Shown: positions 5,286 through 36,847 of the stretch, in pieces | Layout: each line of letters opens with the position of its first letter | Position numbering within the stretch: position 1 is the first letter of the stretch | Assembly (NCBI GenBank): GCA_951230915.1 | Contig: OX579642.1 | Location: forward strand, 11,284,001 to 11,348,000 | DNA length: 64,000 bases | Source of the DNA: Antitrichia curtipendula | Taxonomy: Eukaryota > Streptophyta > Bryopsida > Hypnales > Leucodontaceae | Reading direction: 5' to 3' | The notes under the pieces: generated by a model | Told to the model about the DNA's origin: nothing | The model's database searches: none | What the model saw: only the letters and a program-made list of their open reading frames with translations | Translations under genes and position numbers: made by a program

Positions 5286-8200
5286 TCACCTAGAGTGAGA
5301 GTGGTCACTACTATCAGTGGATGAAGTCTCCTGCTCTGCCTCTAGGGCTGTCTCATCTACAAACTGCAGAACTTTAGGGTCTATAGTTTTAGACTTCTTC
5401 CGTATAGGAAAATGTCTCTGAGAGGCAAATGTCGAAGGTAAAGCCTCTGCATATGATGGCAACACAAAGGACTTCTCTGGGCTTGGGAAAAATCCAGGTA
5501 AAGTGAAGAAGGGACGATGAGTTGCCGCATTAGAGATTATGCTGCCAAAAAAAGAACAGATTATTAGAAATGGATTGAATATCACATTTTTGATGAAACA
5601 AACATGTATCATAAAGGTAAAGGAAACATAAACAATGGATTAGAACTACACATATCAATTGGGAAAGAAAATGCAAGCTTGGATAGACTTACTTACTGAA
5701 ACGGGATTTCTTCACGATGTGTGGGACTTCAACTTCCACTGCATCTTCATCGTCAGAACCCAGTATGACTGTTGCAGCTGATGTTGAAACATCTGGAACT
5801 GAGCGAATCATTGGGGCCAAAATTGCATCGAAGATTGCCTTATCTTCTTCAAGTGCAACAATGTGCCTGCTGAGGATCCTACAAGCGTGGATGGAGGCTC
5901 CTAATCCCAAGAACAGAAAAAATTCAGTTACTAGAGCATTCATAAGGAATAAAAGAGAATATGAAAATCTAGATTACAAAAAATAGATTGTAAAGGCAAC
6001 TGGAATGACCTGTTGCAGCAGTGCAGTCGATAACAACGTCATTGAGAAGTGTTGATGCCTCTATCAACATCTGAAGGAATCGGGGATCCTTCTCTCGGGC
6101 CCCTCTCCATGGGTTGAACTTGCTGTCCATGGTCAAAGTCTCCTTCTTTGTGAAATTTTGAAGAACATCATCAACAGCTACATCTATCCCTAATTCCTTC
6201 AGCCTTGGGCATAGTTGAAATTTGAATTTAGAAGGACCAACTCCAGGCAAGTTCCTCACCAACAACATAATGCCAAAGCGTTGTGTCTGCAAGAATGATG
6301 AGATAGGGAGACAATCAGTCCATCACAAATGCATAGACATAAATTACAAGCTTACTCTAAAAATCATTATAGACTGAAATATGTAGAGGCATACAATTCA
6401 AAAATAACGGGAAACATAAAGTACATTGCGGTAGAACTGAGAATGCCAAAATTGAACTATTAAGGCAATTGACTTCATCCAGAAACAATAATAGGAAATA
6501 ACTGAGTTTGAAATCGAAATGCATAATGAATATACCGTTCTTGAAGTAGAAACAGGCGAGGCTAGATGTAATCAATTCATTCTCCACTAGTCCTTCATCT
6601 TCTCAAAAGAGTATGTAGTACCATACTTCAAAATAGTAGCCTTCGTAATGGCCCTCAAGGGATAAATAACGATTAGAGCTCCATCATCTTGTAGATGACC
6701 ATCAGCAAATTCAAAAATGGCCTCTAACTAGGAAGGTGTGTCCATATTCCACTTCGGAACGCTAGTTGCAGGCATCGACAAATTTGGGACCGGCAAACCC
6801 TCTGGCATGTCTGCAATAATAAGGTCAATCCGCGGTTTATCACTTCTGGCTCCTTTGAAGAAGCGCTGCTTGTCCCCTTTGTGCTACAACAGATTTTTAA
6901 AGGGCAGACGATTGAAGCCCAAAACAGAGTAATAAAGCTCAAGAACCAAATCACAAAAAAACGGTGAAAGGCATGTATAACTGCTAACCTTATCAATGAA
7001 ATCTAGGATGTCACTATACACCTTGGACAGAGGATCAGCAATTACATCTGCAAGAGAGTAATTGACAATGAACTTAGAGATGGAAATCTCTGAGTCATTG
7101 AGATATTCCACAGCTGATGGCCCATGCTGCATTCCCTCTTTGCTGAGTGAAGCATATTGAGCATCACGCTTGGTGCCACGCGAGACCGAACGCTGGTGCT
7201 GGGAGCCGTCATCCTTCGATGATGAAGGCGGAATTTGCTCCCTTGCCTTCTTCCCCTTGGTCTTCTCCGCTGCTGGTGCCTTCTCAGTCTCAACAAGTTT
7301 TTGTGCTTTCCTAGTGATCTTCTCCTTGGCCTTGTCCACCGCTTCCAAGTTCTTCAATGCAATCTTCTTGTCAGCCTCCTCTCTCCGCTTAATAGCTTTG
7401 GCCTTCGCATCATCATTAAGGTCGGCGAACTCATCAAATTCTGCAACGACCTCATGAGAGTTGATCGCCTGCTTGATGTGCTCTTTTGGCAGTGGCGTGA
7501 ACTCCGGTGGACAATCTAAATACCATGCACCGGATTTGAGGTGCAAACTCATCCACCAACGCAATTGCGCCGGTGAAAACATGCAGTGCTCGGAAGAGAC
7601 ATCTAACCACGTTCCAAGAAAAGGAGGCAGGTCACGCTTTGCGATTGCTCCCTTTGGTAGCAGCTCATATTTAAAATACCTGTACAAAGCATAGAAAGTG
7701 AGAAGGAATATTGTCTCAAGGTCAAAAATTGAAAAATCTAATTAAGCATACCACAGTGACAACACGAAATGGAAGTCGTACCGATAAACTGCACATTTGA
7801 CAACGAGATCGGAGCCTTTGGGTTTTCTGAAGTCATCCGACTTCCTGAAGACATCGTGTCCTCAGAACTGAGTCAAGAATGCATGGTCCCAGACTCGAAT
7901 TCGCCATGCTTCAATATAATCTGTGAAATTGTCAGGCTCTTGGAGAGAGTCCATTGACAACGTGAGCTGGTCCTTCTTCACAATGTTATCGAACATTTCA
8001 ATTCCCACCTCTTCAATCTGTGCAATCATATGAGGTAGTTAGACATATGCAGACAATGCAAGATTCCGTTGCAATCAGCATTTCACAACGTCATGCACTA
8101 CATAATATGACAATGATATGATTAAATACTAGAACAAATGAAAGGGAAGTACTTACCCCTGCATACCACCAGGCCTTCGCCAAGAAGGACCTTAACTCAG

Positions 8201-9668
8201 TCTCTCCTACTGGCTTCAATGGAAAGCGCCTTCCTTCTCTTGTTTGAATGGATGAATTCCACCAACGCAACCACTTCACCTTTTGTTCCCGGCTGACGTT
8301 GCAAGTTGCAATCAGCTGCAACTTCTCCAAGGTCATTTCCGGAGTGATGTTGGAGCTCCAGTGATGCTCAATCTGAAGCACAAGTTACATAGAGTTAGAG
8401 GTAGTATATGATAAGAGAAGAACATAAAAATGTGGTTGTAGGCAATGTCGTCATACCTCTTGAAGCCATTCGTTTCCAAGATTGGGATTGGCAATGGCTG
8501 TTAACTTCCCCAACTTCTGGATCAACTTCGATGTCTTTTCCTTTGTACCTAATTTCATAGCAGCCAAGACGCCCTCCTCTAACTGATCCTCCTCCGATGT
8601 TTCTTCTTTGTAGAGCCTAACTGCAACATCAGATGCTGCCGCTATCTCGTACTAGAAACAACATAAACATAAGTTAATTCCGATATAGAATGCTTTGAGC
8701 AAAATACAATAAAAAAAAAAAAAAAAAATTATGTTGAATGACTCTACTTACCCGGAAGATAAATGAAGTGAATACTTCAACCGACATCGAGTACCAACTC
8801 TTTTGAAGATTTGTTTGGCACTGGGTCATCTCAGTGTCACTCAAGTGCTCAGAGAACTTCTCCAATGGCAATAGTCCGTACTTGCGAACACAATACAACG
8901 TGTGAACAAGGCTAGTCTTGATGAATGAATTTTCTATATGCTTGCAATATGAAATGAAGTTGTTAAATTGTACCTAAATCATAACAGAGGACAACAAAAA
9001 AAATATACAATGTAATGATGAACTTACTTGTTGATGTCGTGCATGGCGTGCATGACATCACCGATCTTTCCCTTCGTCTCAAGAATTATGGAATCAACAG
9101 AAATATGCCAATCTCTATCGAGGCCATGGTGCTTCTTAATATAAGAAGTCCATGAAAGCAGTCTATGGTTACCATCACAGACAAAGAACTTGGAGTTCTG
9201 AAAATGATGCAATCCCAGAGTTGCATTGAGGTGGGAGTTGAAGATCTCGTTTTCTTCATTCCACAATGGTCCCCATGCCTCTTTTTCTGCATCAGACACC
9301 TGCTCAGTCTCACCCTGCTCGTTAGTAACTGACACATAAAAAACGCACGATCCATCTCTGTAGCCGTGCACGAACTCCTGTTCCAATTTCGTGAGATCAC
9401 ATTGAAGCGCAAGCCTAACCATTGGCATTGGAGCAAGACGGCACAATGGGATCCTTAGCCGAGATATGGAATGAGGTTTTAATCTCAATTCGGCAATGGA
9501 CGCAACGGAGTTGACTTTCTATGCTCTCCTAAACGCGTCCTCGGATTTGTACTCCTCTCCAGTCTCCTCCATGTCTTGGTCAATTGAGTTTCCCTCCTGA
9601 ACTCCACTTCCAGAGGTGACACGCTCTAAAATAGATTGAGTCTCCAGTTGTTCTAAACAAGCCTCCAC
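5286..9668 (-). pseudogene. Element A ParB-like domain / amino-DNA-methyltransferase-like protein, multi-exon
   Basis: Exons by GT-AG signals and frame (minus): 9668-9028, 8973-8752, 8651-8457, 8372-8157, 8017-7752, 7679-6989, 6883-6536, 6286-6010, 5900-5693, 5541-5286; stop TGA. The first exon has a ParB/sulfiredoxin-like block ending FFVCDGNHRLLSW. The exon at 7679 has a Lys/Glu-rich coiled coil. The exon at 6883 has IDLIIADMPEG and LQDDGALIVIYPL, the place and spacing of motif IV in beta-class N6A/N4C methyltransferases. The exon pair 6286/5900 has NPWRG, then VVIDCTAATGASIHAC and RHIVALEEDKAIF, matching motifs X, I and II in the right order. Motif IV reads DMPEG rather than DPPY and motif I lacks FxGxG, so activity is doubtful. 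In-frame stops: 9521-9519, 7864-7862, 6730-6728, probably 6599-6597. The end of exon 6883 may contain a frameshift. Fused ParB-methyltransferases are known from phages and bacterial mobile elements. Confidence 0.7.
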
Positions 9669-11090
9669 CTGAATAGAAAACAGATGATGCATGATGAAGT
9701 GAAGTATAGGAACGAGAGGATACCAAATTGGATGGCCCAGCAACTACCCTTGGCGCCGAGGGAAACCCTGGAGTAGAGTCCCTCAGATAGAGGTCAAGGA
9801 AATTGAATAAAAAAAACAAGCAATTTACTTACAACATCAAATTAGTCAGTCACCAAAAAAACTATGGAGGTGAATTGGAGAATCTTTTGAATTAGGAGAC
9901 ACATCCAATTAAACAGATTGAGCTCATCCCATTAGTATTCAGTCAAGACCTCATGTCCACAGTACTACCCTCGACGCCGAGGGCTGGACTAAGAAGAACT
10001 CTGTAGATCAAAATACAATTAAAGAGAAGGATTCCCGAAATTGAACTTGTCAAAATAACTATTAGCCAGTACAGAATATGCTATAATGATAACTTGGGAC
10101 AGAAATTCCTTCCCTAAGTTCGCAAGCTCATTTTATTTAACGCAGGGCAGGAAGTTTCTATCAAGCTACTACATCATCATAATGTTCCGAAATAAATTCA
10201 AATGGATAGGTGCAGATCAAGCATAGATAAATTATCTTTATTCTCTTATCTAGGAAAGACAATGTAACAACACGAATTATCAGCAAGGCATTGCTAAATT
10301 CAAATAAGAGAAAACATTAGTTCATGAACTGATTGTCAAACCTAAGTGAAGTTATACACAGATTACGACTAACTCAATTGATTAAAACAGTATGATAAGA
10401 CGTTCCTAATCGCCAAGTAGATGGATGTATTTCGTGAATTTCAAGATCATACAAGAAGTCCGAACTCATGATTGAAATTACATATGCCCTTGTAAGACCT
10501 ACCATAGTCCTACGATCAGAACGCACTCACAACACACATACCCTCAGCGCCGAGGGTATGAGACCAGTAGTCGCCTACTGACTGAAATTACAAATACGAA
10601 GTTCAACTTCGACACTGAGGATACTAGAAGGTGAAGAATTAGCTAATATACATTGTAGAAGATGTTACAATACTATTACTGTACTATATCAACCCCATGT
10701 CATCCGACCACTACCCTCGGCGCCGATGGATACATATACGTACTGACCCGAGATTAACTAGGACAAAACATTTGATAAGATAGTGTTCACAATAAGCAAA
10801 TTGAGGAGTAAGCCAGGAATGTTCGTGAACAGATACCTTAAGAAAGAAGAAATCTCAAGAACCCGAGATATTCTACATGTCATTGAGTAATGACCACAAG
10901 CAATACGACAGACACAAAGCAGCAACTTCCCGAAACAGATCAAACAAACAAGACACTGGACATGCCCTCGGCGCCGATGAGAACCTCAGGGGCTGACCGT
11001 TTAAGAAATTTCACAAAATAGTTCGCTCTCCTAATCTTGTCATGAGGTGCGGGGGACACGAGAAGCTCAACACGATCTGCGGTTCTCTTG

Positions 11091-11106
11091 CCCTCGGCGC
11101 CGAGGG
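11091..11106. repeat. Perfect element-A palindrome
   Basis: CCCTCGGCGCCGAGGG reads the same on both strands. It is the consensus for the dispersed A family. Confidence 0.9.
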
Positions 11107-11135
11107 CAACCTAGGTTCTATTACCTTTTGATCAG

Positions 11136-11222
11136 GAAATTCGAGGCACGACAACGAGAGGCACGGGAATGCGAGGCACGGGAATGTGAGGCACGACAAT
11201 GCGAGGCACGACAATCTAAGCG
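11136..11222. repeat. Short tandem repeat GAGGCACGRSAATG
   Basis: About five units of 15-17 bp containing GAGGCACG. Found only here in the window. Confidence 0.75.
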
Positions 11223-12153
11223 TCTCACAAACTGCAACCAATGAAGTCGTCAACATACCTCGGCGCTTACCGTTTCACATATAGCCTTTTGAATCAGAGA
11301 GAAACTCTTACTTGCGCTCAAAGAAATTTATAAACAGATATTGTATCGTACCGCAATATGAAGTCACATTTCATTTGGGACAGAATTAGCATAATCTGAG
11401 GTAATTGTTGCAGATTGGTATTTCTAGTTCTCCAAAAATCAGAGTTTGAAGAAATAAATCGTCAAACCTGTAGGCCGAGATCCTCCCCTCAACGCCGATG
11501 GGAACGTCCAGACAGGTCTCACTTGATACGAGAAATTCCTCTACGAGCTGCAGTTCTAGAAACTTAAGGTAACATAACAGTAGAAAATCGTTCGCTTTTC
11601 TGAATCTGCCATGTACAGGCGATAAAACGAAATTCATTCACGAGTAGACTGCTATTCAGTAATCCAATCTCGATAGGTTTTGGTGCACCTATTGTCCGTC
11701 ATTACACAACAGTTTGGATTAGGGTTCTCACTGTGGATAAATACTACACTCATGTGATGACACAAGTAAAATGGGGACATACTGATTCTAATGATATAGA
11801 TTGTCGGGATACCAGAATGTGGGACTGAGATGATGAAGACAGGGACAATGAGATATTCTCAAATTTGTCTATCCTTGCCCTCCGAGACCCTCAAATGTCA
11901 TTAAGGGACCTCCTTCGGATGCTTTGATACTCTGTTTACTTAATCCGACCAACTTAAATACATTTCTAAAATCAATAATCAGTTGGGATTAGTCGTGACT
12001 GCTGAAGTGAGATGTGGAATTGGAAGACCAAACCCCTAGGCGCTGAAGCAAAAAGAATAATTGAATCGCAAAGAATTGATACGCTGGAGTAACGAATTCA
12101 AGCGGTGTTTGAATCCAGGGTTTATTGGTTTAAAATCCTCGGCGTGGCTTTTC

Positions 12154-12169
12154 CCCTCGGCGCCGAGGG
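12154..12169. repeat. Perfect element-A palindrome
   Basis: Second exact CCCTCGGCGCCGAGGG copy, with a diverged half copy immediately upstream (about 12137). Confidence 0.9.
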
Positions 12170-13165
12170 CGGAGTCTACAAAGCCACAGCTGATCCGACC
12201 TTTGTTTGGCACCTAAGGGACGCTCCGATAATGTAAATTTATTATCTCAAACCCTAAACCGACCTCAAGTCCCAGTTACCGATCATGTAGAAGCGACCGT
12301 CCTCCTCAAATCGGTGCCTAAAATTCCGGTCACGACACAACATCTGGAAATAAGGGATCAGGGAAAAAATACCTCTGTTGCTGGAGCTACTGCAGAGACC
12401 GTGACGTCAGCCATCCTTTCTTCAACTACGTTGTCGTTGCTTCCGCTTCCATCTCCGTCGTTTTCCCTGCAGCCCCATTGCGGCACTTCGCGTAGCCGGT
12501 CTCCTCGCCATTTCTCCGTGCTTGTGCAACAAAATAAGAATTAGGTAAGTTCTCAAACAATCAAGTGTGCATTCAGAATCAAAACCCTAGCTAAGGACAG
12601 TCTAGCGGCATAGTGTAGTTCAAAGTTGCGCACAAGAGTGTATTCGCGGCGGTGCGGTCTTGCGGGGCGTGGCAAACCAGCGTCACTCTCTGCAGTGAGA
12701 TATATCTGGATCCCCAACCCTAAACCCAAAATCCCGTAAGGTCATCTGCAGGTCAAACCGTAAATATACGACGTGGACCATATTTCAACCACTGCATTTA
12801 TGATTCCCAACAGCACACGACCGGGTCTAATGAAAATGATACTGGACCGTCCGAGACGGTCCTAGTTTGTAAGGTCTCTAGTGAAATAAGGTAAATGGAA
12901 TTATTATATATCCCAGGCTGTGAATTAAACAATGTTATATGAGTAATGCTTATACGATAAACTAAACAGAATGAATCAAAGATTATATTTTATTGATTTT
13001 TAGAATGCCTGGACGTTAATTGATTACCTTGAGTGTAATCAGTTCATGATTCAAAGGTATATCGAGATAACATTGGCTTTGCGTGATCTGCGGACCATAT
13101 AGTTCAAATCCAGAATTCATCATAAACAAAGGAAATAGCATTGCATAGGTTGTGCACAGAGAGAT

Positions 13166-13536
13166 TTACTTACTGAATTGTACGGCGTTGCTTCCATGGT
13201 AAAATACTTCGGCGGCTTATCCACAATGTGCGTTACCTTCACTTGACTCCCGTCTGTGAGAACGCCAACTTGTTCAAGTTCTTGAATTTGAATGTGTGTA
13301 GTGTCTCCAATTGGTAGCGACTTACAAAGTACATCAACCTTAGAACCTCTATTCCTTGACCGCTGCAATTCTTTCCTTGAAGAGTATAGGAGTTTTCTAC
13401 TCTTCCTCCTCTTCCTATAGCTATGCACAGAACCACCATCGGTTAGACCGTCTGGCGTAAGCATAAGACTAACACTACATAATCCGGAATAACATTGAGC
13501 AAGATGGAATGGAATGTGAGCTTCACCGTCCATCAC
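13166..13536 (-). CDS. Possible 5' coding exon of the A ParB-methyltransferase gene
   Basis: An open frame from the ATG at 13536 to a GTAAGT donor just after TPYNS (about 13166). It is basic and Ser-rich in the middle (YRKRRKSRKLLYSSRKE) and polar after that. No known domain recognised. It shares strand with the ParB exons and occupies the place where element B has its 5' exon (35903-35542). Linkage to the ParB exons is inferred from position only. Confidence 0.4.
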
Positions 13537-14930
13537 TTATCATTATGGACACACGACGGTATTTTGAATCATTCAGGAGGGCTGAACGTCCGAGACACTG
13601 AGTGGTTGCTATAGTTGTTGCACTGTGACTAATGCCTTGATGTTGTAGACGTAATGCCCGTTTCGATGAGAACATTAATTTTCGCAAATGTCTAATTCAA
13701 TATAGAAATTCATACATATGATAGCACATTAACAGAAACGACTCTTATTGATTTACCTATGTGTACCCATAAATGCTCTTTCAAATTACTTGTAGACTGT
13801 AGTACCTTGGATATGAGATTCCAACAGTAACATGATCGTCCATATCTCATTGCGCCACCAAAAAATTAGATACATTATCAAAGAGAATTTATTATAGGTT
13901 TCAACTTTGTCACATTCATTAGTTAGGTAACCAGACTTGCAGGTATTCTCTGGGTGATTGCAAGAATGACTTGCTATTTCTGTTCCACTTTGGCAGTTTA
14001 CAGACTTTTTTTGGGAGTACTATAAAATAGAATATCATTTTTAAAATAATATTAATAATATGGACAATGTATACTATTATAAGAAGACAGTACCCTAGGA
14101 AGGAAAAGCATGAGAAGAAATTCTAAATAGGAGATATAGAAAAGTGCAGAATCGACAGAAAATAGATACTTGGACGTTTTAATTTGTAAAGAATTGGAAA
14201 AGTAATTTTCAAAGATTCTAAGAATAAGCCATTTGAAATAACTTTATGGTGTAGAGATTTCACTATAAGAATGAACTTGGAACCGTATTGAATGTTCAAA
14301 AGTGCACGCGCAAGGGAGCTCTATTTTCACAAAGGTGGAGGACATAACATAAAATACTTTTAAATTCCCCTTGGTAGGAACATGCCTTCCTAGTGTGGGA
14401 ATAGACCATAGAAATTTCAGGTTTAGATCACTTAATGTGCTGGTCACCCAGTACTAATACCCTTAAAGCCGAAGTGTGACAAATTAGCTAAATTGACTTT
14501 TAAATATAAAAATATTTTTGGTAATTTTTTGAAAAATAAGGGATATGATTATACTGAAGGGATCCATCTCCAGTAAAACTTTCAATTTCATACGACTCAT
14601 TCTTCAATAGTTATTACAATCTAAAGCTAAATCACCCCTGCTGTGACAATTATCCAATACCAATGTTGTATGCAATGACGCATCTCTTAACAATATAAAT
14701 AACAATTTGATTGCCGGTTTAAGGTACATTAACTACGGGATTACTGTCAGTATTTTGTATTGAGAGAAAGTAATGACGTCGCATTACTCTTTGGGGTTTG
14801 AATTTCAATTTGATGTCATTCATATATCCATGTAGTGTGTTCCGTTCAATCCCTTAGTTCAACTTTTCATTGAGGTCAATGCTTTTTTGTGATACTATTC
14901 CTGTTATTGTTGTGCTCATTTTCTGGGACA
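13537..14930. promoter_or_regulatory. Intergenic region between the two divergent genes of A
   Basis: About 1.4 kb without a convincing ORF, AT-rich, with one diverged palindrome (about 14459). Because genes run outward on both sides, promoters for both should lie here. No specific TATA box is assigned. Confidence 0.4.
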
Positions 14931-17089
14931 ATGGCCTCCCTTCAAGCGGATGGCCACGAGATACCACTAGTACTTCCGCTTCGAGATGATGGATGTGTTG
15001 TAGTGTCTTCACATCTTCTTCATGTTCGCTTTGGTTTCGTCCAATCCAGTATCTATGTTGAGGAAGAGGTTATGTCTGAATCTGGCTTCTTGAAAGAGTC
15101 TGTCTATATACCAAAAATAGTGGTTGAGGATGGTCATGTCTGGCACCTTTATCAAGGGCGCTATCGAGCTTACGGTTTGATGTCTGAAGTGAGAGTAGCT
15201 TCCACTGAGATTTTAGCTCGCCAATCTGAATACTCTACTGTGAACATGCCTGATTCCCACCATGATATTGAAGAAACTATTGACCGCAATCATATTCCGA
15301 TTGCTGATACTCCTATTCAACTTGTCTGTATAAAGCAAGAACCTCTTGACCCGGTCATAGATATATCTAGTGAGTCCGAGGGAGAGTCTTCTGGCCAGTT
15401 AGGTCTTCAGGCAATACTTCCTAGTAGAGTCTCTGATGATGTCTTGAAGACACCATCTGGTATATATCGAACTTCTTCTAATAGTCCTGTTGTGTCCAGT
15501 CACTCTCGGCCGCCAACTTATCCGAGTAGTACACCCGCAATTAGCATCATTGGATGCCTACGGAAGCTAGCAACGATTCGTGGATCTAGAAACGAAATTG
15601 CTTCGTTAGACTACGACTCAGTCATCCATCAAAAGGTGCAATACCTTCCTGCAGATTTTGATGGAGATGTACTATTCGAGTTGCCTTCTCTTCGTGTTTC
15701 ATCTTCATCATCCCCTGCTGGGAACTTATAGGGCATGGATAAACAATACGATGGACATGCATGGTGTCGTACCATGACGTCCAATATCAACAACCAAGAT
15801 GGCCTGAAGTTTAGAAAATCTTCCTGTGCAGGCCATCTTGTATGTGACAACTCCGAATGCGATTACTTAAAGCGGTCCTTGAAGCGGAATGAGACTGAGT
15901 GGTGTGGTTATACACCCGCTCCATTCCATGTTGGCACGATCCCTCCGAAAGATTCATTTCTACAATGCAAGATATGCAAATATCCGCCGCATTGCGTTAG
16001 TACATGTAGTGCTAGAATATATTACGTTTTTGGTGATACTACACAATTGACTAGAGCATGCATTCACTTAGGGAATCACGTGCATCCTGTAGCATCAGGA
16101 ATGTATAGAGAGTCTTCAGATACAATTTCCAGTCTCATTGCAGGCGTGGTTTCAAGAACCCCTAGTGCCACCAACTCTGCCATTGCCTTAGCAGCTAGTA
16201 AACAGTTTCTAGACAATCACCTCATACACAATGGTGAAGGACCTAAGGAAATGTTGTGGGGGAACTTGCTAGAGGATGTGATGGACAAGTTCCAGATACT
16301 TAGTTCTCCTAGCATTCGAAATGTTATTTCTTCGTTTCGTACTAGTGGCAGAAGTGGGGTCATAGATAGCATCATGAATATGAAACGGAATTTGAGATTT
16401 GAGTATATTCATGACAGTGTCTTTCCCGGACAAGGAAAGGCAAAAGTTTATTGTTTAAAATGTTGGTAGAAGGGCCAGGGAGTGGAGTGGACTTGGTCAC
16501 TCGCATGCAACCCAACGGAGATCTGGAGAACGCATGGATCATGTTTGATCACGTCAAACGCGTCAAAGACTGGACCACAATGGCTTGCCACGTCTATGAC
16601 ACAAGCTGCAGGAAGGTCATGACAATTGCTGTCTATGACATGCAATCTGAAGACACGGAGATTCAATGCATCTTTTGGAGGTTATTGAACAATGTCATGA
16701 AACTCAATGGCGTGGAGAACACAAACTTCAAGGGCTTCATGGCGGACAGTGCACAAGCAAATTGGAATGCCATTCGCACTATTTACGGTACTGGAAATAC
16801 AAAAGATGAAATGCTGAATCGTGAGCGAACTTGTCTTCTACACTGGAGTACGTCCATGCATTGCCATACGCAGAAGCTCATCAAACCGGACTTGCAGCAT
16901 CAACATATTCGTCTTTGCAAGCAGTACAAGGACTCCAAGTCTATAGATGAAGCTGAGACTCGATTCTTAGCGCTTTGATCCTGGTGGTTATCATCTGGAG
17001 CAGCCTTGGAAGATGCTATGCGGGAACTGGAGTTGTGGCTTGCATTTTGGCATTTCCGATATCGTCAATGGGGTGGCTTCATGCAAATG

Positions 17090-17526
17090 GTACTTTGCTC
17101 TATGTGGTTTCTCTTATAATGTCTTTTTTCTAAATCCAATTTCCTTCTATTATAGTTGTTTTTTGTGAGTGATTATCACTTGTCGATAGAAATTTTGATC
17201 ACTCCAGGTAGTGGGTGAGGCTCTCCTTGCCTACGAGGGGAGCCTTGGCCTCTACCACGAGTGATCAAAGTTTCTATTATTCCGTTGTAACCAACCCTAC
17301 GATGGTATGCAATTTCATTGTACTTGCTTTTGTAATTATTTTGCTACTAGAAAGCAATGTACATCACTAAAGATAGTTGCCAAGGTTCCCCTCGGCGCCG
17401 AGGGGAGACTTGGCTACATATAGGAATGATCAAAACTGTTTTAATTTGTCAGAACTAAAACCGTGACAGTCTCCATTGTTTCTTTGAATTTGTCTTGATT
17501 CTCAGTTTTTATGTTTATTTTTCTAG
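17090..17526 (+). other. Intron of the A transposase gene carrying a perfect palindrome
   Basis: Donor GTACTTTG after FMQM and acceptor TTTTTCTAG before GATTTAAG. It contains an inverted repeat at about 17193-17275 (GATCACTC... and its complement) and the longest exact A palindrome at 17387-17406. Confidence 0.7.
17387..17406. repeat. 20-nt perfect element-A palindrome
   Basis: TCCCCTCGGCGCCGAGGGGA is identical on both strands. It lies inside the transposase intron. Confidence 0.9.
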
Positions 17527-25990: not shown

Positions 25991-26023
25991 TGCGTATATG
26001 CCCTATTTAACTACTTTTGGACT
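25991..26023 (+). repeat. Left terminal inverted repeat of B
   Basis: TGCGTATATGCCCTATTTAA followed by CTACTTTTGGACT; complement at 46007-46039 with two mismatches. Confidence 0.8.
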
Positions 26024-26623
26024 TTGGGCCCAATTTTGGACTTTTTGGAAGATATCCCATGATGATTACAACCAACATTATGGAAAAAATCACCATCATG
26101 ATGTTGAAAGTAGCTAGGATAATAGGTAATTGAGCACATATGTATATTAAAAGCCATATAACAGAACGCGCTTTGGCATTGTAAGCGTTTAGGGTGCGTT
26201 TTTTGCTGTTTTATTCATTGAAACAAATCCATCATCTAGGGATTTCATGATGTAGAGATTGAAATACTTGTCCACAAATTTACTTCTGGAAATTGCAGAC
26301 CATGTGTAAATATTGTGAATTCAAATGCTAACATGTCTACATGTTTATTTCGTTAGAAGCATTGAGATCCACAACAAAATGGAGGTATGAAATCCATCAC
26401 TGAAATTGGGAATTGGAGATCAAGAGATCTCCAGATGAAATTCCCATAGCATTATACAGGCATATAGGATGACATGTTCAATGCATGCAAATAGAGAGAT
26501 TTCTGCAAAATAGAGACAATTGTATAGTGAAGTAAGGTGAAATCACCACAATTCATTCGTAAAGATACACCAAAGCATACTTAGGCGTGCGCCTCTAAAA
26601 TGAATATGAAATTAGCTTGCATT

Positions 26624-27211
26624 TCAGAGTCTACTGTACAAGTAATTGGGGTCATCTCTAACATGTATGACCGGGGGGATTAAATGCATCCGCATGTTCA
26701 TAGGATCTATATCAAGGAAATGAACCGTTCGATTCCTAAGTACCTCCCTGGCATGAGGATCAGTAACGAGGGTCTTCAATACATGTCGACGATGAGGATG
26801 ATGCAATTGCAACTTGCAATGTAAATCACATCCACAAGTTATCCACCATAACCTCGAAATAAGTTTTTGTGGAAGAAAACGTGCAAGAATCTCTTTCAAT
26901 GACGACCAATGCATATTCGACCAGAGGAAAACGGAAGTCGTTGTCAGCAGAAGACTAATGAACGCCTCGAAGCGTGATAATGTCTTCACATTAATCTGGA
27001 GATCCGAAGGAGAATCGCCACTGCAGAGAGCACCCGTGAGTACCAGGATCACCACCGCCTGCAGAGAACAACACCCGCCCACAGTCAAGGACACAATACC
27101 TATAATGAAAGGAAATGTGACCTTAATTATCGAGAGATCTCCTGATGGAATATATCCTATGAAACTGTCTGTAGCATACCCGAACAAGGGATCAGTGTTC
27201 CATGAACTGCA
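26624..27211 (-). CDS. Possible exon, 195-residue protein with two hydrophobic segments
   Basis: Open frame on the minus strand with a good acceptor (TTACTGCAG) just before 27211 and a stop at 26624. It contains hydrophobic stretches (FPFIIGIVSLTVGG; FISLLLTTTSVFLW) and a Cys/His-rich patch (CGCDLHCKLQLHHPHRRH). A B palindrome at 27129-27147 lies inside and would be translated. No family recognised. It may be the end of another B gene or chance. Confidence 0.3.
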   Translation of the reverse strand, partial: CSSWNTDPLFGYATDSFIGYIPSGDLSIIKVTFPFIIGIVSLTVGGCCSLQAVVILVLTGALCSGDSPSDLQINVKTLSRFEAFISLLLTTTSVFLWSNMHWSSLKEILARFLPQKLISRLWWITCGCDLHCKLQLHHPHRRHVLKTLVTDPHAREVLRNRTVHFLDIDPMNMRMHLIPPVIHVRDDPNYLYSRL

Positions 27212-27223
27212 GTAATCAAGCAT

Positions 27224-28506
27224 TCCGATTTACTAATAAAATTATAAAGAAGAATGCAGAAAACAATTCGTACTTCCGACGACCCCCAGAAGCTTTGGGA
27301 AAAATGTGAGACTTGTGTAATTATGCTCCCATCGGTTCAAAGTAATTCCAAGATGATCGAGAGAAGTAGGGCTCCATTCTTAAGTGAACTGCTTATGGAG
27401 AATGTAGATCATTCATAAACTAAAATGAACTAAAAAACTACCTCTACATGTGGTGGTAGACTCAGAGGAAAAGAATTCGGACCGAGGTAAACCATGAAGA
27501 TTTGTATCATGAAATCCCGTGATGCAGACTGTAAAAGAGTAATACACCCGTACCCGAAAAGCAGAATTATCGAACATCAGGAGATCTCCGGATGAGGTAA
27601 TGGACGAGCTTATTACAAAAAAACATCCGAAGAGTTTATGCAGAAGCGAACTGAACCAGTGTCCATATTACTGATGGACGAATAAGTTGGTAAAAAAAAA
27701 AAATATATATTGTAAGAATGAATTCTAAGCGAAAGAAATAAGAAACAAAACAATGATACCATACGCACTCAGAATAAAGATATGACATGTATAAGGAATC
27801 ATGTAACAGGAGATCTCCTGATGAAGAGTCAGCAGTGGGAAGGCTAGGGGCCCCAACTTACCACAATTCAAATACGATTAAAATTATTCCAAAGAAGGTA
27901 GAGGGGTAATAGAATACCGAGAGCGTAAATGAAGTATTTGACAAAAACATAATGAAGGACTCATAAAACGGAGAGCATTTGTGAGACAAATCAGACATCT
28001 ACATCTCTTCCGAGAAAATCCTAAAACTACGCAAATTTAACGAACTGAGTCTGCCCGAAGGATTATAATTTACATATTACAGGATCATGGAAAACAGACG
28101 GCCATACTAAGAAATAAACAACCACATTAGCGAATTCGCTGGAAATTCCCATCATATCGATTACAGACATTAGAAAACAGTAACTCACAGAAGGGACGGA
28201 AAATAGAGTACTTTAAAGAGAGAACAAGAACAGCTTGGTATTCGACTACAACAACACTGAAGTAAAAGAAAGCATCGTGAGATATCACGATGATTGCATT
28301 ACTATAAAGATTACAAGTAAATTTATAAGGTCAACCAGTTTCTCTGTTATGAACATAAGCGTCGAAGTCAGTTACAGAAGATACATTTACTATGATTATA
28401 GTCTGTTCTACCAATATTGTGACACCCACTATCTCTACTTATAAAGAAGTCCCAGATATCATCGTGAGATCTCCTGATAACGCCTACCGAGTATGAAAAA
28501 ACAGCC
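27224..28506. other. Non-coding part of B with dispersed palindromes
   Basis: No solid ORF. Palindromes at 27575-27594, 27808-27819, 28273-28292 and 28460-28479. Confidence 0.6.
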
Positions 28507-29734
28507 CTATTTAGGAATTCCGCCCAGAATACTCTTCGCCAGCCTGGAAAACTTAATCTCCGACCTCTGACCACCCAGAAGTGGATGGTTCAAGACGTAG
28601 GAGACAACACTCTCGTTTGACTGAAACAGATCCTGAAGCCATGGCTTCAACTGCCCCTCCAAGAAGTAGTCCTTCAGATCACCAGCCTATGTTTTCGGAT
28701 GAACGGCGGTGCATGGATCATTCAGGAGGTTCTTAATCGGACTGTCATCAATTAGAAGAACATTGTCTAAGGAATTCAAATTCGCGATTGTGACGAAGGT
28801 GGTCAGATCCTTCAGGAAGTAGGGCCTATCCGGATTGTTGCGGTCTCTAAAGGACGACACCCTGCAATCCTCCTGCGAGAGAACAATGACGTCCGCTGCT
28901 TTAAATGAGGTGGGCCGCAGAAGGGTATCCAGTAGAGACCTCACATTCCGGCTCAAAGCGCTGCTCCAGAACGCAACGGCTGCATGTCTACGCAACCAGT
29001 CAAGGAACTCTACAACACCCGGACGGGGTACATTCTTGCGTCGATTACGATCATCAAAGGATCTGTGAAGAAGAAGCCCATTGAGGTCAAGGACCACAGA
29101 GTACCGTCTGAAAACTACCTCTCTCGATGAACTCGCCACAGGCAAGGAAGGCATTCCAAGCTCTGCAAAAGACAAAAGAAACATGTAGTTAGAGTCAATT
29201 CAGGAGACATAGCTTTAAAACAAAATATGATACAATGAAATAGTAGAGCACTCAAGCACCTGTGACGTCTTTCGTCTCATTTCCCCTCTGCTTCGGCGCA
29301 TCGCTCTCCGGTACTTTCAAAGCATCTTGTGACGGCGCCCCTTGTTCAAGATTCCAGTTAAACACCTCTTCGTATATGAAACGATTTGCTTGCCTTACGG
29401 CTTCCAGATGCTTTGACTTCGGATTATCTAGTCGTCGATTGGGGTATGAATTTAGACTCGAGAAATGACATAACTCCTTGAACACATCAAAATTGCTGAC
29501 TTTCAGAACCTTTGCCCCATCTAAGGGCAAGGCATCCAAAACCCCCGTGTCCACACCTGTATCGCTTTCTCGAGCAACCTCACCTGTTGCCTCGAGGGCG
29601 ATGTTTACTACAGATGCCTCCTCAAGCCTCGACGAGTCCCTACCTGGTACGGGACTAAATAAGTCCAAATCCGTCATAGCATCCCTTCGAACGTCAACAC
29701 TCATGTCCACCTGCACGCGCTTTTCCAAAGGCAC

Positions 29735-29754
29735 TATCGTGGGATCCCCCGATG
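29735..29754. repeat. B palindrome inside a coding exon
   Basis: TATCGTGGGATCCCCCGATG; read as SSGDPTIV on the minus strand. Confidence 0.75.
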
Positions 29755-30052
29755 AAGGAAGGTTCTCCTCCATTGTCTCTATACCCTTCCCCTTGCATCT
29801 AGAAGTAACATAGCCATGGGAGATAACCGGTGTCTCCTTTAGCATCTCACCCAATACCAAAGTGCCGGTTGCAAGTTCTGATTCCTCCTTCCCTAGGATC
29901 CGCGTCTCACTTGCAGGACTCGATAGCAGCTCAGATTCTCCAGTCCTCAACTGATTCACCTCTTCATGTATGCCGGAAAGCTCTAGCGTGCAGCCAAGTG
30001 CAGGGCTAGGTGACTGACCGTCTTGCCCAACGACGACCGGGTCCTCCTGTGC

Positions 30053-30072
30053 CATCGTGAGATCCCTCGATG
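30053..30072. repeat. B palindrome inside a coding exon
   Basis: CATCGTGAGATCCCTCGATG; read as SSRDLTMA on the minus strand. Confidence 0.75.
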
Positions 30073-33000
30073 ACGGCTGGGCAACTTCCTCCTGCGGTCG
30101 TCCTGCCTCCTTCACAGGTGACTGAACGATCGGACCCTCTCCATTTCCCTGCTCCGCATCAGACATCTGAGGGTGCTCAGCACCCGAGAGTGTATCATTG
30201 GCGGATTCTAAATGTGACGGTCGAGAGGCGCAGGAAACAAGTGTCTTCGCGGCTTTCGACGCTTCCGGTGACGGCGAATCCACTGCATCGTTGCCGGAGC
30301 CCTTGCCTTGTTGATTTCCGGTTGCCACCATCTCAGGATCTGAGCGACGAACAAACCAGTCCTTCTCAATCACTTCCACGCCAGGTGACGAGGTGATTCC
30401 GTCCTCCAAGAACTTCTCCGCCGCTAGCACTGTGGTGCTCTTGCTCTTCTTCTTAACGATTACCTTGTCCTTCACCTTCTCCAGAACATCAGAAAGCTTC
30501 TTCTTGATTTCTGGTTTTTTCCGCTTCTCCTGCGTCGACTGCTCTGGACCTCTGACTGACTTCGAAGAGTTCTTGACGGCTTTCTTACGGAGTTTTCTCT
30601 TGTCAGTAAGCGCCGCGTCCGCAGCGTCATCCTCCAACTCACTATAGTGACGAGCAGCACCTGAACCAGCTGGTGAATCCCGAACTCCCTCCCCATGCCT
30701 TTCCCTCCCGCTCTCCCGCGCTGGACAAACTTCCTTTTCTATCTTGTTGACCAAGGGCGGAGTCTCGAAGTCACCCGTCTGCCCCCTTCCTCGCAGAGAG
30801 TCCTCCTGCGTCGGAACATGCCAACGACACTGGAAATCAATAAGCCATTGGAATAGCGTATATCATTGATGTGCGCTGCCAGGCATCCGGAGATCTCACG
30901 ATGGCTCAACAAGAAGTGTACACTGACCTTATTGTTCCCCTACAATAATCCGGTTCCTCTTCATGTTCTCGTTCATCGGAATTGTCCAATTCCTTGTATG
31001 CTTCTTCCTCCTCATCCGAGTCCTGCTCCTTGTTGTTCAGTACTTGGTGCTCAGACAGTGGCTTCGGCTTCAAGTGGAAGTAGTCCCACATTTGTCTCGC
31101 AAAGGCTTGACTTTCATATGCAGCCTCCGCGGATTTCACAACTTTGAGGACTTTCACTTTGGCACTCTACAGCAGATGGGGAAGAAGAGTACGTCAGTAT
31201 CTGCTAGTTTATGGGATCAACATAATATTGGAAGGCGATGAAAAGGAGAGGGACAATCAGTTTTGTACCATTCCTAGGAATGTGAACTCTGGTCCACCGT
31301 TAATGTTGACGAGGATAAGGTCGCCATATACGTGCTCGAAGAAGATGATCATGGCCGTCAAAATCTTCAAGTACGGTACATTCTGCCGTCTCCAATATGT
31401 GAAGTCATCCCGATGCTCTTTGGACCTGTACACTTGCTTCATCTTTTTAGATTCTCCCGGGAAGAACGTTTTGAAAGACAATTGCGAACCATATTCCTTG
31501 TTGTACCCGAAGCAGAACACAACGAAGACGTTGAAGCCCTCCCCGGCAATAGCCTCCGGGAATCCGTCCTCTGGTGCCGTCATGTAATTGACGAGGTGCA
31601 GGTCCCACACTCTAGTGTTGCCGTTTTCACGTCTTCTCTTCTCCAAATGAAGACACAGCATGTGGTATCCATCTGCATCAGTAAAGAGTACGGCGGCAGA
31701 CCGGGCTGTGATAAGCTTCGTGAATGGGTCGTAGCACTCCAAAGCGTCGAAGAATAGTCTCAGTCTTCGATCCTCCAGAAGTTTTGCCCGTGATCCCAAA
31801 TCCGTCTGCTCAAAGAGAAACCAGAAGTACATGTGCGGCCTACTTCCATCCCGCCAAGAAACGACGTCGGGGTTCCTCAGAACACTGCTGAGATTCCCGG
31901 AGTGGTCGTCCAAGACTCTGCACATGTAGTTCTCGGAGTATCCCTTCTCAAGCGCCTCCTCCACTCCAATGGTCGCCGTCGAACTGAAGTACGCCTCCCA
32001 CATGTCCCGCACAAATTGCGGATAGTCAGCCGGGTCGATTGTCTTGTTAAGCCCCGCTGTGCGATCCAGCAGCCACTTTGATCCGGAATGCGAATCCATG
32101 GCTTTGTTCACCCAAAGCTCTACTTGCTCGCGATCTATTCCCTTCTCCTTTGCAAAGTCGTCCCACTCCGTTGGGCGTTGGGGAGTATGGTTCGTACTCC
32201 GGCTTCTTGCTGGGTAGTGGATGCTTCCTGTAGTGAAGCATCAACTCGTTCTTCATCCCCCAAATGAGGCGCTCCTTGGCGCCTGCCGAAGCAAGAGTCG
32301 TGAGGGGTTTCGGGGTCTTGACCTTACCGCTCTTCACGGTAATTTTTTTCTCTTCCACGAGAGTCGCAAGGTAGTTGATGTCTTCCGCTCGAAGCCCATA
32401 CAACGTCTTGAAATTGTTTGCAGTAAGGGGCTTGCGCTTCAGAGATCCGGTCTCATTGACTGACCCTGCGGTGTCCGGCAGCAACCTTGTCATGTACTTC
32501 TCCTCAATTTTAATCCATCTGTCAACATCCTTGTCGTCCTCGAGAAAGGCAAGTGGAATCCGCAGCTCCTTGTTGTCTTTCGGCTTCTGACCCGTGAAGA
32601 TTGTTACAAGGGACGGATGAAATGCCTGCTCAAGACCAGAAATACAACGAGACTATTAGTACAGGACCGTGTACAGCATTGAAGCATCAGAGGATCTCAC
32701 GATGATAAACTATTTTGGAGGAAGTCATCATGTATTTCGACACTCGAAGTGGGCATTTCATTCTAGAGTAAGCGAACTCATGATCCTAGATTGAGAGCTA
32801 CATTAGCATCAAGGGATCCCACGATATTGAGAATGAAGACTGCATTTAGCAGTGGACCGACCAAATGAGGGCATTTGACATCACTCATACCAGGTACTTC
32901 TTGTCGTGGTGCCTGCCAAAGAGTGCTGGTTGCGGGCTGCCCATGTCTCTCCATTTGATCTTGGCGTTGATTAGTTGCTTCGTGAAGCACTATTCTTTCT

Positions 33001-34278
33001 GTTCGCCAGCAAGATTTTGGTTGAGGGCCCGTGAAAGCAACAACACGTTATCGAAGTTCTCCTTCTTGGCGAAGATGGGTACTATGTTGAATGTCGTCGC
33101 TAACTTCCTGTCCGCCTCTGCTATCTCGCCGTCTTTCACCAGATTCCTGTACGCCCTCACAGTGTGTTGTCCCCCTATAATGAAGTACTGAGTCTTTGTG
33201 CTGAAAACCGCATTGTCGGGCTCCTCTTTGTAGAAGTCGGCCTTCTTCTTGTCCCCATAAGGACCGCACTCGACAGGGAGCACCGTTATAACTCTATTAT
33301 CTGAGTTGAAGTCAGGTGCGATTTTGGCCTTGTTCATGATCCCTTCAAGGCGGCTTTGCTCTATTCCTCTGTATACGAGAATTCCGGGGGGAGCCTCGTG
33401 CAGGCAATCGTAGTGTACGCGGATGGGATTTCCATCCACGTTGCAGAATGGTTTTTTCCCCCATCGGTACAAGTCCGTGAAATGGGTGTCATACAACTTC
33501 TTCATCTTAGTCATGTCCTCCTTTGTCAGCTTCTTGATTTCGCTCTCTTCCATATTCACGCACACGTGAATAGATAACTCGGTCCCTACCTTTCGCTTTT
33601 TCCCAGATGATGTGGCTTCTTCTGCCACCTCTTTGTCACTTGGAGCTCCGGCAGCTGACTTGCGCTTCTTGGCCTTCTTCTTCGGAGATGGTTTGGTAGG
33701 AGTACCGTGAACAACTGGACGCTCGGGAGCTCCAACGTCGATCCGATCCTCGTCAATCAAATCCTACTGAGATTTCATTTCAGCCACACTCCAATGGGGT
33801 GATGAGGTGCTTCTACAGAACAGCAAGGATCTGTTTGTCATGGACTTGCACTTCGTCATGTTGAGCTTAGCGTAGTCCAGGATTAAGCCGTAGGTGATGA
33901 ACTGGTCACTGTTCGGTATCTTTTCCTCCACAACGACAAGAATTGTATGCCCATCAAGGCCCTGCATCTCCGTGACGTTTAGCCCAGCTAGTTTGTGCAC
34001 CTTGTTGAGATGTCTCAGCATCAGGACGATGAGAGCCTTGCCTTCCTCTATCACAAACTCCAGCCACCATTCCGTGACGCTGAGGTTGCATCGGAAAACT
34101 GCCGCCGGATTGTGCTCTCCGATGTACTCGAAGGAATGTATCCAGCAGTCGACAAAGGCTGCAAGCTTCCTTGGGCTCAAGTCCTCAAGAATGTCCTGCA
34201 TCTGTGCACCACTGCAGCATTTCATATCATACGAAGTGTTAGATTAGAGTGTCATCATAGCAGGTCCACATCTGGAAT

Positions 34279-34876
34279 CATCGTGAGATCACACGATGTC
34301 TGCTTATACAGTAGGGCTTCTATGACAGATTATTACGACACCGCAGCTTCGAATGGAACTGGAGAGTTCCTACGTGAACATCATCAGGGGATCTCACGAT
34401 GCTAGACTATTACTGGTCATCATCGTGAGATCTCACGATGTGTCCTCACTCATACATCCAGGCTTAGGGTTTAGACTGAACTACTTATTATTCATGATCT
34501 GTTGGTCTACCTTGCTTATCAGGGGATCACACGATGCAATCACTATAAGGGGAGCAGCTCTGGTTGGGCAGACTACAATAAGCTTTGGTGTTCTGGGATA
34601 CCACTCATGATCCGTTATCGTGAGATCTCACGGTAATCTCTCTTTTATTCTACAGCTTCAGTCTCAGGAGTGAGATTTTACGGTTATGCGGTTGCTTTTT
34701 CAGCTTATTGAGTATCTTATTTCCCTCATTTCTTTGATGTCTCTTGGTTATCAAGGGATCTCATGATGATTTGAATGTGAATACAATCATTTACAAGACA
34801 TCCAATGCAGATTAACTGTCCCAAATTTTCCAGTCGGACTACTCTAATGGATACTTCATCGTGGGATCTCCTGATA
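34279..34876. repeat. Dense run of B palindromes in an intron
   Basis: Copies at 34279-34298, 34381-34400, 34420-34439 (perfect, CATCGTGAGATCTCACGATG), 34517-34536, 34614-34635, 34749-34768 and 34857-34876, then 35051-35069. All have a central GATC. They lie between exons 35208-35091 and 34201-32891. Confidence 0.9.
34420..34439. repeat. Perfect 20-nt element-B palindrome
   Basis: CATCGTGAGATCTCACGATG is its own reverse complement; taken as the family consensus. Confidence 0.95.
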
Positions 34877-36847
34877 GGGCTGACCCCTTATGCATTTCTC
34901 TGGTTGATGCCACGCCACGATGCGCGGTTATAGGGTTTTAACAACCTTAAAACCGTGGGTTCTGAACTACAGACCTGTAATTATCGTGCATTCTTCAATC
35001 TGCTAATTCTAAAACCTCTGTTGTTCTTGTCTAAAACTCTGTAATGGTAGTATGGTGAGATCTCACGACATACGGTTCAGAGGAACTTACCTGTCATTCC
35101 AAATTGGAAGGCCTCCGCTACGTTGTGATGACGGTCCTGCCATGCTTCGTCTTCAACGTGGTCAAGGCCACAAAGCAACCTTCAATGTATGAATCGCAGC
35201 CTCAACTCCTGATACATGACGGCAAAGATCAACATCAGGAAGCCATAAATTTGAACTATGTATCAAACTCAAAGAACCGCAATGGATACAGCTTAAACTT
35301 GCACGCCAGTGACCACAAGAACGAGGTGGGACAAATTTGAACGGAAACGAGTAGCATTTCTCCAAAACTCAATGAAACTACTAATAACATCTATATGCTG
35401 TCCAACGTCCACAATGTCAAAGCTACCAACAAGATAGCACAAGCTAACAGCACAATTGTTCTCAACGCACAAAACAAAAATCCCGTGATGCATTTCCAAA
35501 AGCGAGCAAGTGGGGACACTCAAACGGAGACATTGACTCACCATCGCAACAACTCTTTCAAACCCGTTGCATGTCGCAAATCAGGTACTATTTGCTCCAA
35601 CTCCTCCAAGGTCGGACGCACTCCTGGAGTAGTTCCAATGTCCTACAGCTCCAGCAATCCTCCAGTGTCGGACGCGCCTCGCCGCCAATAACGCCGAGTT
35701 CCACTCACTGACGACAAGGGAAGTTGTCCACTCCGGAAGACCAGCGGCACAAAACGCAAAGGATCCGGATCGAAGACTGGAACATCGGGAGAGAAAACAG
35801 CGTGAGGTTGGGGAAAGGAAGAGTATCGGGAGAGAAAACAACGGGAGGCAGCAAAACTCTCATCGGGGGAAAGAGAAAACCATCCGGAGGCGACAGAGGC
35901 CACGTGGCGCGAGCAGACAGGGCGAGGCGGAAGACCGGCGGCGGATGTACAGGGTCATCATGACCAAAATTCATCAAGGAACTCCCTTTATTAAAATCCA
36001 CATCATGAGATTTTTATAAAATCCATGAAATACATATCATGAGATTTTCTGGCTCCTGTAGAGGACGGAGGTCTAATCAAAATTTATTTAACTTACTACT
36101 AACTATTCAAATTTAAATTGATGAACACTCTTTTCCAATAAGTTTTAGAACTACTTTCTTTTTTATATAACAAATACTTGCTTAGAACATGATGTGTACT
36201 ATCCGTGTGTGTACAACCAAGATAAAAGTAAAGAAAAGGTTAACTAATTAGTTCGTAATTGAATTAAAGTATGTCAATTATTTTTGACACCCTAAGCAAC
36301 GTATCAAATGTCCAGTTCAACAACGTTGCGAAGGATTATTTCCTACAGTTAAGAAATTGAAAACACTACGAATGTTTTCTTCTGGTTAATTTTCCATCAA
36401 GATTAGAATTAGTTAAAAAAAAAAGGAAGTGTACATTGTCATTCGTCCTATTTCCAATATATAGGAATACCTATTTTTCCTAGTGCAAAATCTTAACAAC
36501 TTTATTAGATGTTACTTCATCACATTTTCAGAACGTTAAAAAATTGACCACCCTGGTCGAGAGTAGGTCACTTTGTCTAATCCAAATTGGATCGTGAGCA
36601 TCTTACATCTTATAACTTAGAGTAATAATCACAAAATGAATCAATTATTACAATCATACAACCTAAATTGGATCATGTTTTATTAGGAATACTTGCAATT
36701 CAGCAAAACGCTATAAGGTTAGCGAAGTTCAAAGGCCTTTCTTCCATGAACACCATATTCATTCAAATGAGAGTTTTCCATTGAAATGAAAGATAAATTT
36801 AAAAAATTCGGTGAAAAGGTTTTAATGTAATTGAAGTCGAGTTTTTA

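What the first reader, a model, noticed from the sequence alone, without database searches (positions are those of the whole stretch)
5286..35903. Two unrelated large DNA transposons carry the same kind of ParB-methyltransferase gene
Seen: A (5286-9668) and B (30928-35903) each have a multi-exon minus-strand gene with a ParB/DGQHR-like block (FFVCDGNHRLLSW; FIIGGQHTVRAYR) followed by segments in the order of a beta-class amino-methyltransferase (motif IV region, then motif I region). Known: ParB-methyltransferase fusions occur in phages and bacterial mobile elements. Inferred: the ParB-methyltransferase is the conserved core of a class of giant eukaryotic elements, independent of which transposase moves them. 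I know of no description of this.
Basis: partly seen in the sequence, partly recalled or inferred. Interest (0 to 1): 0.92.

Follow-up and report, generated by a model that had tools for sequence, protein, structure and literature searches.

The report
Transposons carrying their own palindrome arrays
Two large, decayed DNA transposon-like elements side by side in a likely plant-related genome each carry a private set of short palindromes, mostly in their non-coding DNA; at least one also carries a broken gene for a DNA methyltransferase, with a predicted ParB-like DNA-binding part, whose intact form would likely recognise these sites and mark the element as its own.

Summary
A (5286-9668, minus) is a real multi-exon gene: the hand-spliced protein matches a 1147-aa moss protein over 93% (E 1.3e-114) that carries PF01555 above cut-off, and A itself scores as a beta-class amino-methyltransferase. 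It lies in a 15,225-bp element with a 10-bp target-site duplication. B has a ParB-like string by eye but passed no sequence test for ParB or methyltransferase. Both genes contain in-frame stops. "No description" is wrong: PMC12477816 (passages) reports a ParB+N4/N6-methyltransferase accessory gene in a 21.5-kb Ectocarpus Sola1 element and cites similar ones in green and red algae. New here: a scan naming no motif finds two large palindrome families in 64 kb, one confined to each element: CCCTCGGCGCCGAGGG (12 of 12 hits in A) and CATCGTGAGATCTCACGATG (36 of 38 in B), mostly non-coding and dense near gene starts. Best reading, inferred: parS-like self-recognition sites for an element-encoded marking protein, working like Arabidopsis VANC anti-silencing. 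No binding or methylation was tested; the host genome could not be searched.

The parts
4199..4208 (.). left copy of the 10-bp target-site duplication ACCCCTAAAG of element A
4209..19433 (.). element A, 15,225 bp, inverted terminal repeats CAGGGTTGCTA / CAATGGTGCTA
   Evidence: score 18.0; best of 30 random placements 15.8
19434..19443 (.). right copy of the target-site duplication of element A
4332..4383 (.). left subterminal ACCTATTACC repeats of element A
19158..19270 (.). right subterminal ACCTATTACC repeats of element A
9027..9668 (-). gene A exon 1 with the predicted ParB-like block (FFVCDGNHRLLSW); one in-frame stop
6989..8940 (-). gene A exons 2-6 (8940-8752, 8651-8457, 8372-8157, 8017-7781, 7678-6989), linker between the two predicted domains; in-frame stop in exon 5
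6626..6883 (-). gene A exon 7 (3' end uncertain), methyltransferase motif IV region (DLIIADMPEG); in-frame stop
6008..6286 (-). gene A exon 8, methyltransferase motif I region (DVVIDCTAATG)
5286..5898 (-). gene A exons 9-10 (5898-5692, 5540-5286), end of methyltransferase and C-terminal tail
9747..12169 (.). main palindrome cluster of element A: 8 hits of CCCTCGGCGCCGAGGG with up to 3 mismatches, between the two divergent genes
4674..4815 (.). 3 further A-type palindromes, near the left end
17389..17404 (.). perfect A-type palindrome inside the transposase gene region
14874..18932 (+). transposase-like gene of element A (Mutator-like by inference: SWIM-like CxC..CxH at 18708, 10-bp duplication); in-frame stop at 15729
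25569..46127 (.). element B, about 20.6 kb, degenerate inverted ends (exact ends uncertain)
32883..34243 (-). gene B, segment with the ParB-like string FIIGGQHTVRAYR; two in-frame stops
26233..45954 (.). array of 36 palindromic sites, logo YATCRKGRGATCYCMYGATR, spread over element B
41196..44654 (+). transposase-like gene of element B with DUF7869
28687..29199 (-). accessory ORF of element B, NIF/FCP1-type phosphatase domain (PF03031, E 1.6e-12)

Best explanation
Each of the two transposon-like elements holds its own array of palindromic sites, which are likely the landing sites of a protein encoded by the same element; in element A that protein has a DNA amino-methyltransferase and a predicted ParB-like domain, and when intact it would bind the sites and methylate the element so that it is told apart from host DNA and likely escapes silencing. 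Shown: the arrays, their confinement to the elements, the scarcity of sites in the ORFs of B, their density just upstream of the genes in B and between the divergent genes in A, and the methyltransferase in A. Inferred: the ParB-like domain in A and B, binding of the arrays, methylation of adenine (or of cytosine at N4), and the anti-silencing or self-regulating outcome. The copies here are broken, so they would no longer act by themselves.
For: Clustering of palindromic 16-mers, naming no motif, gives two large families in 64 kb: 23 copies, all at 26420-45718, and 9 copies, all at 4674-17389; the two other families and the largest family in 3 shuffled controls have 4 members (111 of 446 palindromes were dropped beforehand as AT-rich or of low complexity). 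B motif: 36 of 38 window hits (up to 6 mismatches) inside the element; 50 shuffles of the element give 0-3, 40 random palindromes at most 4. A motif: 12 of 12 hits (up to 3 mismatches) inside A, 0 in each of 50 shuffles. The B logo is symmetric over 20 bp, and none of the 12 bases on either side carries more than 0.33 of 2 bits, so the site is not part of a larger repeat. 3 of 36 B sites have their centre in the ORFs I took as coding, against 52% expected; 15 of 36 lie in 1.75 kb just upstream of gene B and of the transposase-like ORF, stretches chosen after seeing the sites. Element A has other, separate subterminal repeats for a transposase to bind. Gene A: moss homolog with PF01555 above cut-off; 35.5 bits against an HMM of six phage methyltransferases, best of its 300 shuffles 1.8. 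Published relative: the Ectocarpus ParB-methyltransferase, suggested there to bind and modify its own transposon. Published mechanism of the same logic: VANC21 binds YAGTATTAY arrays in non-coding parts of its own transposon and lowers its DNA methylation.
Against: No ParB profile matches A, its moss homolog or B, and the structure models are too poor to judge (mean pLDDT 34 and 39). B has no supported methyltransferase. No direct evidence ties the palindromes to these proteins: the elements cover 56% of the window, so two random confined clusters would fall one in each about 15% of the time (my arithmetic). GATC as such is not enriched in B (96 against 103.5 expected). A 201-aa ORF at 26624-27229 that I did not count as coding holds one more site (27128). 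Some A copies (4674-4800, 17389) share a longer hairpin context and may belong to another repeat. Motif IV of A reads DMPE rather than a canonical catalytic motif.
Confidence: 0.5

Rival explanations
1. The palindromes are binding sites of the transposases, or operators of the transposase and accessory genes, and the ParB-like methyltransferase has nothing to do with them.
For: One site cluster of B sits directly upstream of its transposase-like gene (40365-41022); transposons often carry repeated transposase sites (general knowledge).
Against: In A the ends carry different subterminal repeats and most palindromes cluster in the middle (8 of 12); in B the sites spread over nearly the whole element (26.2-45.9 kb).
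Confidence: 0.25
2. The palindromes are short mobile or duplicated repeats that happened to spread inside these elements, without function.
For: Some A copies share a longer hairpin context; the stretch at 20.4-25.3 kb has its own short GC-rich repeats, such as GGGCGACCTC.
Against: B sites have no shared flanks and a symmetric degenerate consensus, stay inside the element (36 of 38) and are rare in ORFs (3 of 36).
Confidence: 0.15
3. Ordinary case, which can hold together with either rival above: two old DNA transposons with captured accessory genes, A a member of the published ParB-methyltransferase accessory class, B an unrelated gene whose ParB-like string is chance.
For: PMC12477816 for A; the negative tests for B.
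Against: Does not by itself account for the two element-specific palindrome families.
Confidence: 0.3

Closest known systems
ParB-like + N4/N6 DNA methyltransferase accessory gene of Sola1-1_Ec32 (Ectocarpus; PMC12477816, passages seen)
   Same: giant DNA transposon, protein of about 1100 aa, methyltransferase plus ParB-like domain, on the strand opposite to the transposase
   Different: brown alga and Sola1; no palindrome arrays are mentioned in the passages seen; here the relative found is a moss protein and element A looks Mutator-like
VANC anti-silencing proteins of Arabidopsis VANDAL transposons (PMC5735166, abstract and passages seen)
   Same: works like it: an element-encoded protein expected to bind an element-specific short motif repeated in non-coding parts of its own element
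   Different: the Pfam scan of the moss homolog lists PF01555 only, no VANC domain; VANC motifs are 8-9 bp and often in tandem, here 16-20 bp dispersed palindromes; VANC carries no methyltransferase (recalled)
Bacterial ParB-parS and phage ParB-methyltransferase fusions (PMC12704722, passages seen)
   Same: ParB fused to N6_N4 methyltransferase occurs in phages; parS sites are palindromes (recalled, and in the abstracts listed)
   Different: no detectable ParB profile match here; eukaryotic, spliced, inside DNA transposons
DNA methyltransferases carried by eukaryotic retrotransposons (PMC5890265, passages seen)
   Same: mobile element carrying a DNA methyltransferase
   Different: those are cytosine-5 enzymes (DNMT) or Dam-like enzymes of DIRS retroelements

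Membership tests
ParB-methyltransferase transposon accessory class | amino-methyltransferase domain | tested here: met
   gene A: (gene B: not met)
ParB-methyltransferase transposon accessory class | ParB-like domain | tested here: inconclusive
   DGNHR and GGQHT strings only; no ParB profile hit; models too poor
ParB-methyltransferase transposon accessory class | lies inside a large DNA transposon with inverted ends and target-site duplication | tested here: met
   A: 10-bp duplication; B: inverted ends, but its best duplication only equals the null maximum
ParB-methyltransferase transposon accessory class | opposite strand to the transposase, about 1100 aa | tested here: met
   A spliced 1055 aa without a certain first exon; that 14874-18932 is a transposase is inferred
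beta-class amino-methyltransferase (PF01555) | motif IV before motif I, HMM score | tested here: met
beta-class amino-methyltransferase (PF01555) | canonical catalytic motif (D/N/S)PP(Y/F/W), recalled | tested here: not met
   A reads DMPE; the moss homolog DTPF
ParB (PF02195) | match to the Pfam profile | tested here: not met
   no PF02195 row for the A pieces, the moss homolog or the B pieces; P1 phage ParB also gives none at E 0.001, so this test is weak
VANC anti-silencing protein | VANC protein domains (DUF1985, DUF287) | tested here: not met
   Pfam scan of the moss homolog lists PF01555 only
VANC anti-silencing protein | binds its motif and lowers methylation in planta | not testable with these tools
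   needs experiments
Mutator-like transposon (element A) | 9-11 bp target-site duplication (recalled) | tested here: met
   ACCCCTAAAG
Mutator-like transposon (element A) | MULE transposase profile | tested here: not met
   no transposase family for the ORFs at 14874-18932; SWIM-like pattern only
Sola1 transposon (element B) | 4-bp target-site duplication and Sola transposase (recalled) | tested here: inconclusive
   TTTA scores no better than the null maximum; DUF7869 found, its link to Sola1 is a guess and was not tested

The most novel reading that the evidence does not exclude
A self-identity system of eukaryotic giant transposons: each element encodes a ParB-type protein joined to a DNA amino-methyltransferase and carries its own private family of parS-like palindromes, so that the protein loads only on its own element and writes a base mark there that keeps it active, whatever transposase moves it. 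It would be the parS/ParB counterpart of VANC anti-silencing, and the palindrome would read out which protein serves which element.
Probability: 0.3. Interest if true: 0.87.

Novelty: new variant of a known kind. Interest (0 to 1): 0.62.

Why it matters
ParB-methyltransferase proteins of algal transposons have been proposed to bind and mark their own DNA, but no target sites were named in the passages I saw. Two element-specific palindrome families give concrete, testable target sites, and make the question of why giant eukaryotic transposons carry bacterial-type methyltransferases directly open to a binding or methylation assay.

Tried and rejected
Rejected: that A and B are shown to be the same kind of gene (no sequence link of B to the moss homolog by BLASTP, or to A plus moss by hhalign). 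Rejected: that this class is undescribed. Rejected: that GATC is enriched as such in B. Close prokaryotic or viral relatives: none in viral contigs for A plus moss or for the two B pieces, none in genome contigs for A plus moss, no tblastn hit in phages for the moss ParB-like part and one chance hit (E 5) for that of B. No Rfam match and no tRNA in the window. P1 phage ParB was fetched to seed a ParB profile and dropped, because it gives no PF02195 row itself at E 0.001. Of 384 phage records with a weak match to the moss protein, 10 were listed; I fetched 7 and used 6 methyltransferase genes of 239-275 aa; the seventh, an unannotated record, was left out. They were not scanned for a ParB part. 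Two AlphaFold jobs gave unusable models (a lone B piece; the moss protein with three A exons), so no fold search was run. The two halves of the B sites are not clearly linked in type (permutation p 0.09). The HMM held the moss protein and was replaced by the phage-only one.
Full report
What was checked. The window has no tRNA and no Rfam match and holds intron-rich, decayed mobile elements. Gene A was spliced by eye from the minus strand between 9668 and 5286 (exon ends). A protein search with residues 60-1000 found one protein with E below 0.001 among 7991 scored candidates: Ceratodon purpureus M758_1G295400 (P0001, 1147 aa, E 1.3e-114, 30% identity, 93% of the query). The match runs through the ParB-like block (VWDGNHRLVAW against VCDGNHRLLSW), a long shared middle part and the methyltransferase, with a stretch after motif IV that my splice lacks. 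P0001 carries PF01555 (E 4.9e-7, 30.4 bits against a cut-off of 26.7), matches four phage methyltransferase families and, weakly, a solved DpnA-type enzyme (E 0.005 with the two-row profile). To avoid circularity I built an HMM from six phage methyltransferases only: P0001 scored 51.4 bits, A 35.5 bits, best shuffles of each 1.9 and 1.8 out of 300. The order motif IV then motif I is the beta-class order. A's own motif IV (DMPE) is not canonical; the moss reads DTPF.

Gene B. The ParB-like string is in the sequence. I could not raise it above that. Two protein searches (residues 160-980; residues 255-435 at E up to 10) found nothing; Pfam, PHROGs and NCBIfam gave no ParB or methyltransferase match and nothing above a cut-off; the solved-structure search gave nothing for the ParB-like part and one weak hit (E 0.1, an acylase) for the downstream part; comparison with A plus moss, and with a methyltransferase alignment, gave probabilities below 1%; against the phage methyltransferase HMM it scored -2.0 bits while its shuffles reached 11.9. 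So 'both carry a ParB-methyltransferase' is half shown. Both genes carry in-frame stops, and the transposase-like gene of A too (15729).

The elements. A is bounded by inverted ends and a 10-bp direct duplication ACCCCTAAAG at 4199-4208 and 19434-19443, giving a 15,225-bp element (score 18.0, best of 30 random placements 15.8). Its right-hand gene (14874-18932, plus strand) has no Pfam hit to a transposase but a SWIM-like CxC..CxH at 18708, which with the 10-bp duplication suggests a Mutator-like element; that is inference. B lies between degenerate inverted ends at about 25569 and 46127; its possible 4-bp duplication is no better than chance. It holds a DUF7869 gene and an ORF with a NIF-type phosphatase domain. 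In both elements the ParB-like gene and the transposase-like gene diverge.

The unexpected part. Looking for inverted repeats I found a 20-bp palindrome, CATCGTGAGATCTCACGATG, again and again in B. A scan of palindromic 16-mers, without naming a motif, gave two large families in the whole window: 23 non-overlapping copies, all in B, and 9 copies of the type CCCTCGGCGCCGAGGG, all in A; two further families had 4 members, and three shuffled controls had at most 4 (of 446 palindromes 111 had been dropped as AT-rich or of low complexity). The 20-mer scan gave 17 copies in B and 6 in A, and no family in three controls (35 of 113 dropped). With mismatches allowed, 36 of 38 B-type hits are inside element B (0-3 in 50 shuffles of the element; at most 4 for 40 random palindromes) and 12 of 12 A-type hits inside element A (0 in each of 50 shuffles). 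The B logo from the 36 sites is symmetric, YATC-RK-G-R-GATC-Y-C-MY-GATR, and no flanking base carries more than 0.33 of 2 bits: isolated sites, not pieces of a repeat. Letters 5-6 of the half site read GT in 31 and AG in 16 of 72 halves. Only 3 of 36 have their centre in ORFs I took as coding (52% of the element once an AT-rich stretch at 35.9-40.3 kb is left out; binomial 3e-8, rough because the ORF limits are rough); a 201-aa ORF at 26624-27229 that I had not counted holds one more. 15 of 36 lie in two stretches, 1.75 kb in all and chosen after seeing the sites, just upstream of the first recognised exon of gene B and of the transposase-like ORF. In A eight of the twelve lie between the two divergent genes (9747-12169), while the ends carry other, shorter repeats. 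Against over-reading: the two elements fill 56% of the window, so that two confined clusters would fall one in each by luck about 15% of the time (2 x 0.238 x 0.321); GATC as such is not enriched in B; and the A copies at 4674-4800 and 17389 share a longer hairpin context.

How it most likely works. A protein encoded by the element recognises the element's private palindromes through a ParB-like domain and, in A, methylates DNA amino groups there. Dense sites at the 5' ends of the genes suggest control of the element's own expression; sites all along suggest that the whole element is marked. The published parallel in logic is VANC: VANC21 sits in non-coding parts of VANDAL21, binds YAGTATTAY repeated there, and lowers DNA methylation along the whole element, and VANC6 has other motifs (PMC5735166, abstract and passages). 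In several eukaryotes 6mA marks expressed genes while 5mC sits on transposons (PMC12695648, passages), which would make an adenine mark a sensible anti-silencing signal. None of this was tested here.

What is known. [quoted passage not shown] neither paper was available) and proposes that they bind and modify their own transposon. PMC12704722 (passages) surveys the ParB fold and finds fusions to N6_N4 methyltransferases in phages; its passages name sulfiredoxin as the most common eukaryotic member. I saw no paper on palindromic target arrays in such transposons in the listings, which cover open-licence PubMed Central only and were capped lists.

Limits. The host genome could not be searched in ten tries. 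Structure prediction failed for want of an alignment.

Noticed in passing
4816-4868: A second copy of the left-end sequence of element A (CAGGGTTGCTATTCTGTGAGC...) lies 607 bp inside the element; the left end may be duplicated or hold a small related element (read).
   Followed up: no
19444-25560: Stretch between the elements with its own GC-rich repeats (GGGCGACCTC, CTGGACGGCC) and 160-bp inverted repeats at 21.7-23.8 kb; looks like another element.
   Followed up: no
57196-61224: Ty3-type retrotransposon with aspartic protease, RNase H, integrase and chromodomain.
   Followed up: no
47084-48586: Protein kinase gene just right of element B (PF00069, E 2.4e-12).
   Followed up: no
1209-2324: RING-finger ORF left of element A, with a sub-threshold match to the cysteine cluster associated with KDZ transposases.
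   Followed up: no
28687-30862: NIF-type phosphatase ORF and a 536-aa ORF without a Pfam match inside element B, apparently further accessory genes.
   Followed up: no
35900-40300: AT-rich stretch without palindromes, with a simple repeat at 39.1-39.4 kb, perhaps a later insertion into element B.
   Followed up: partly
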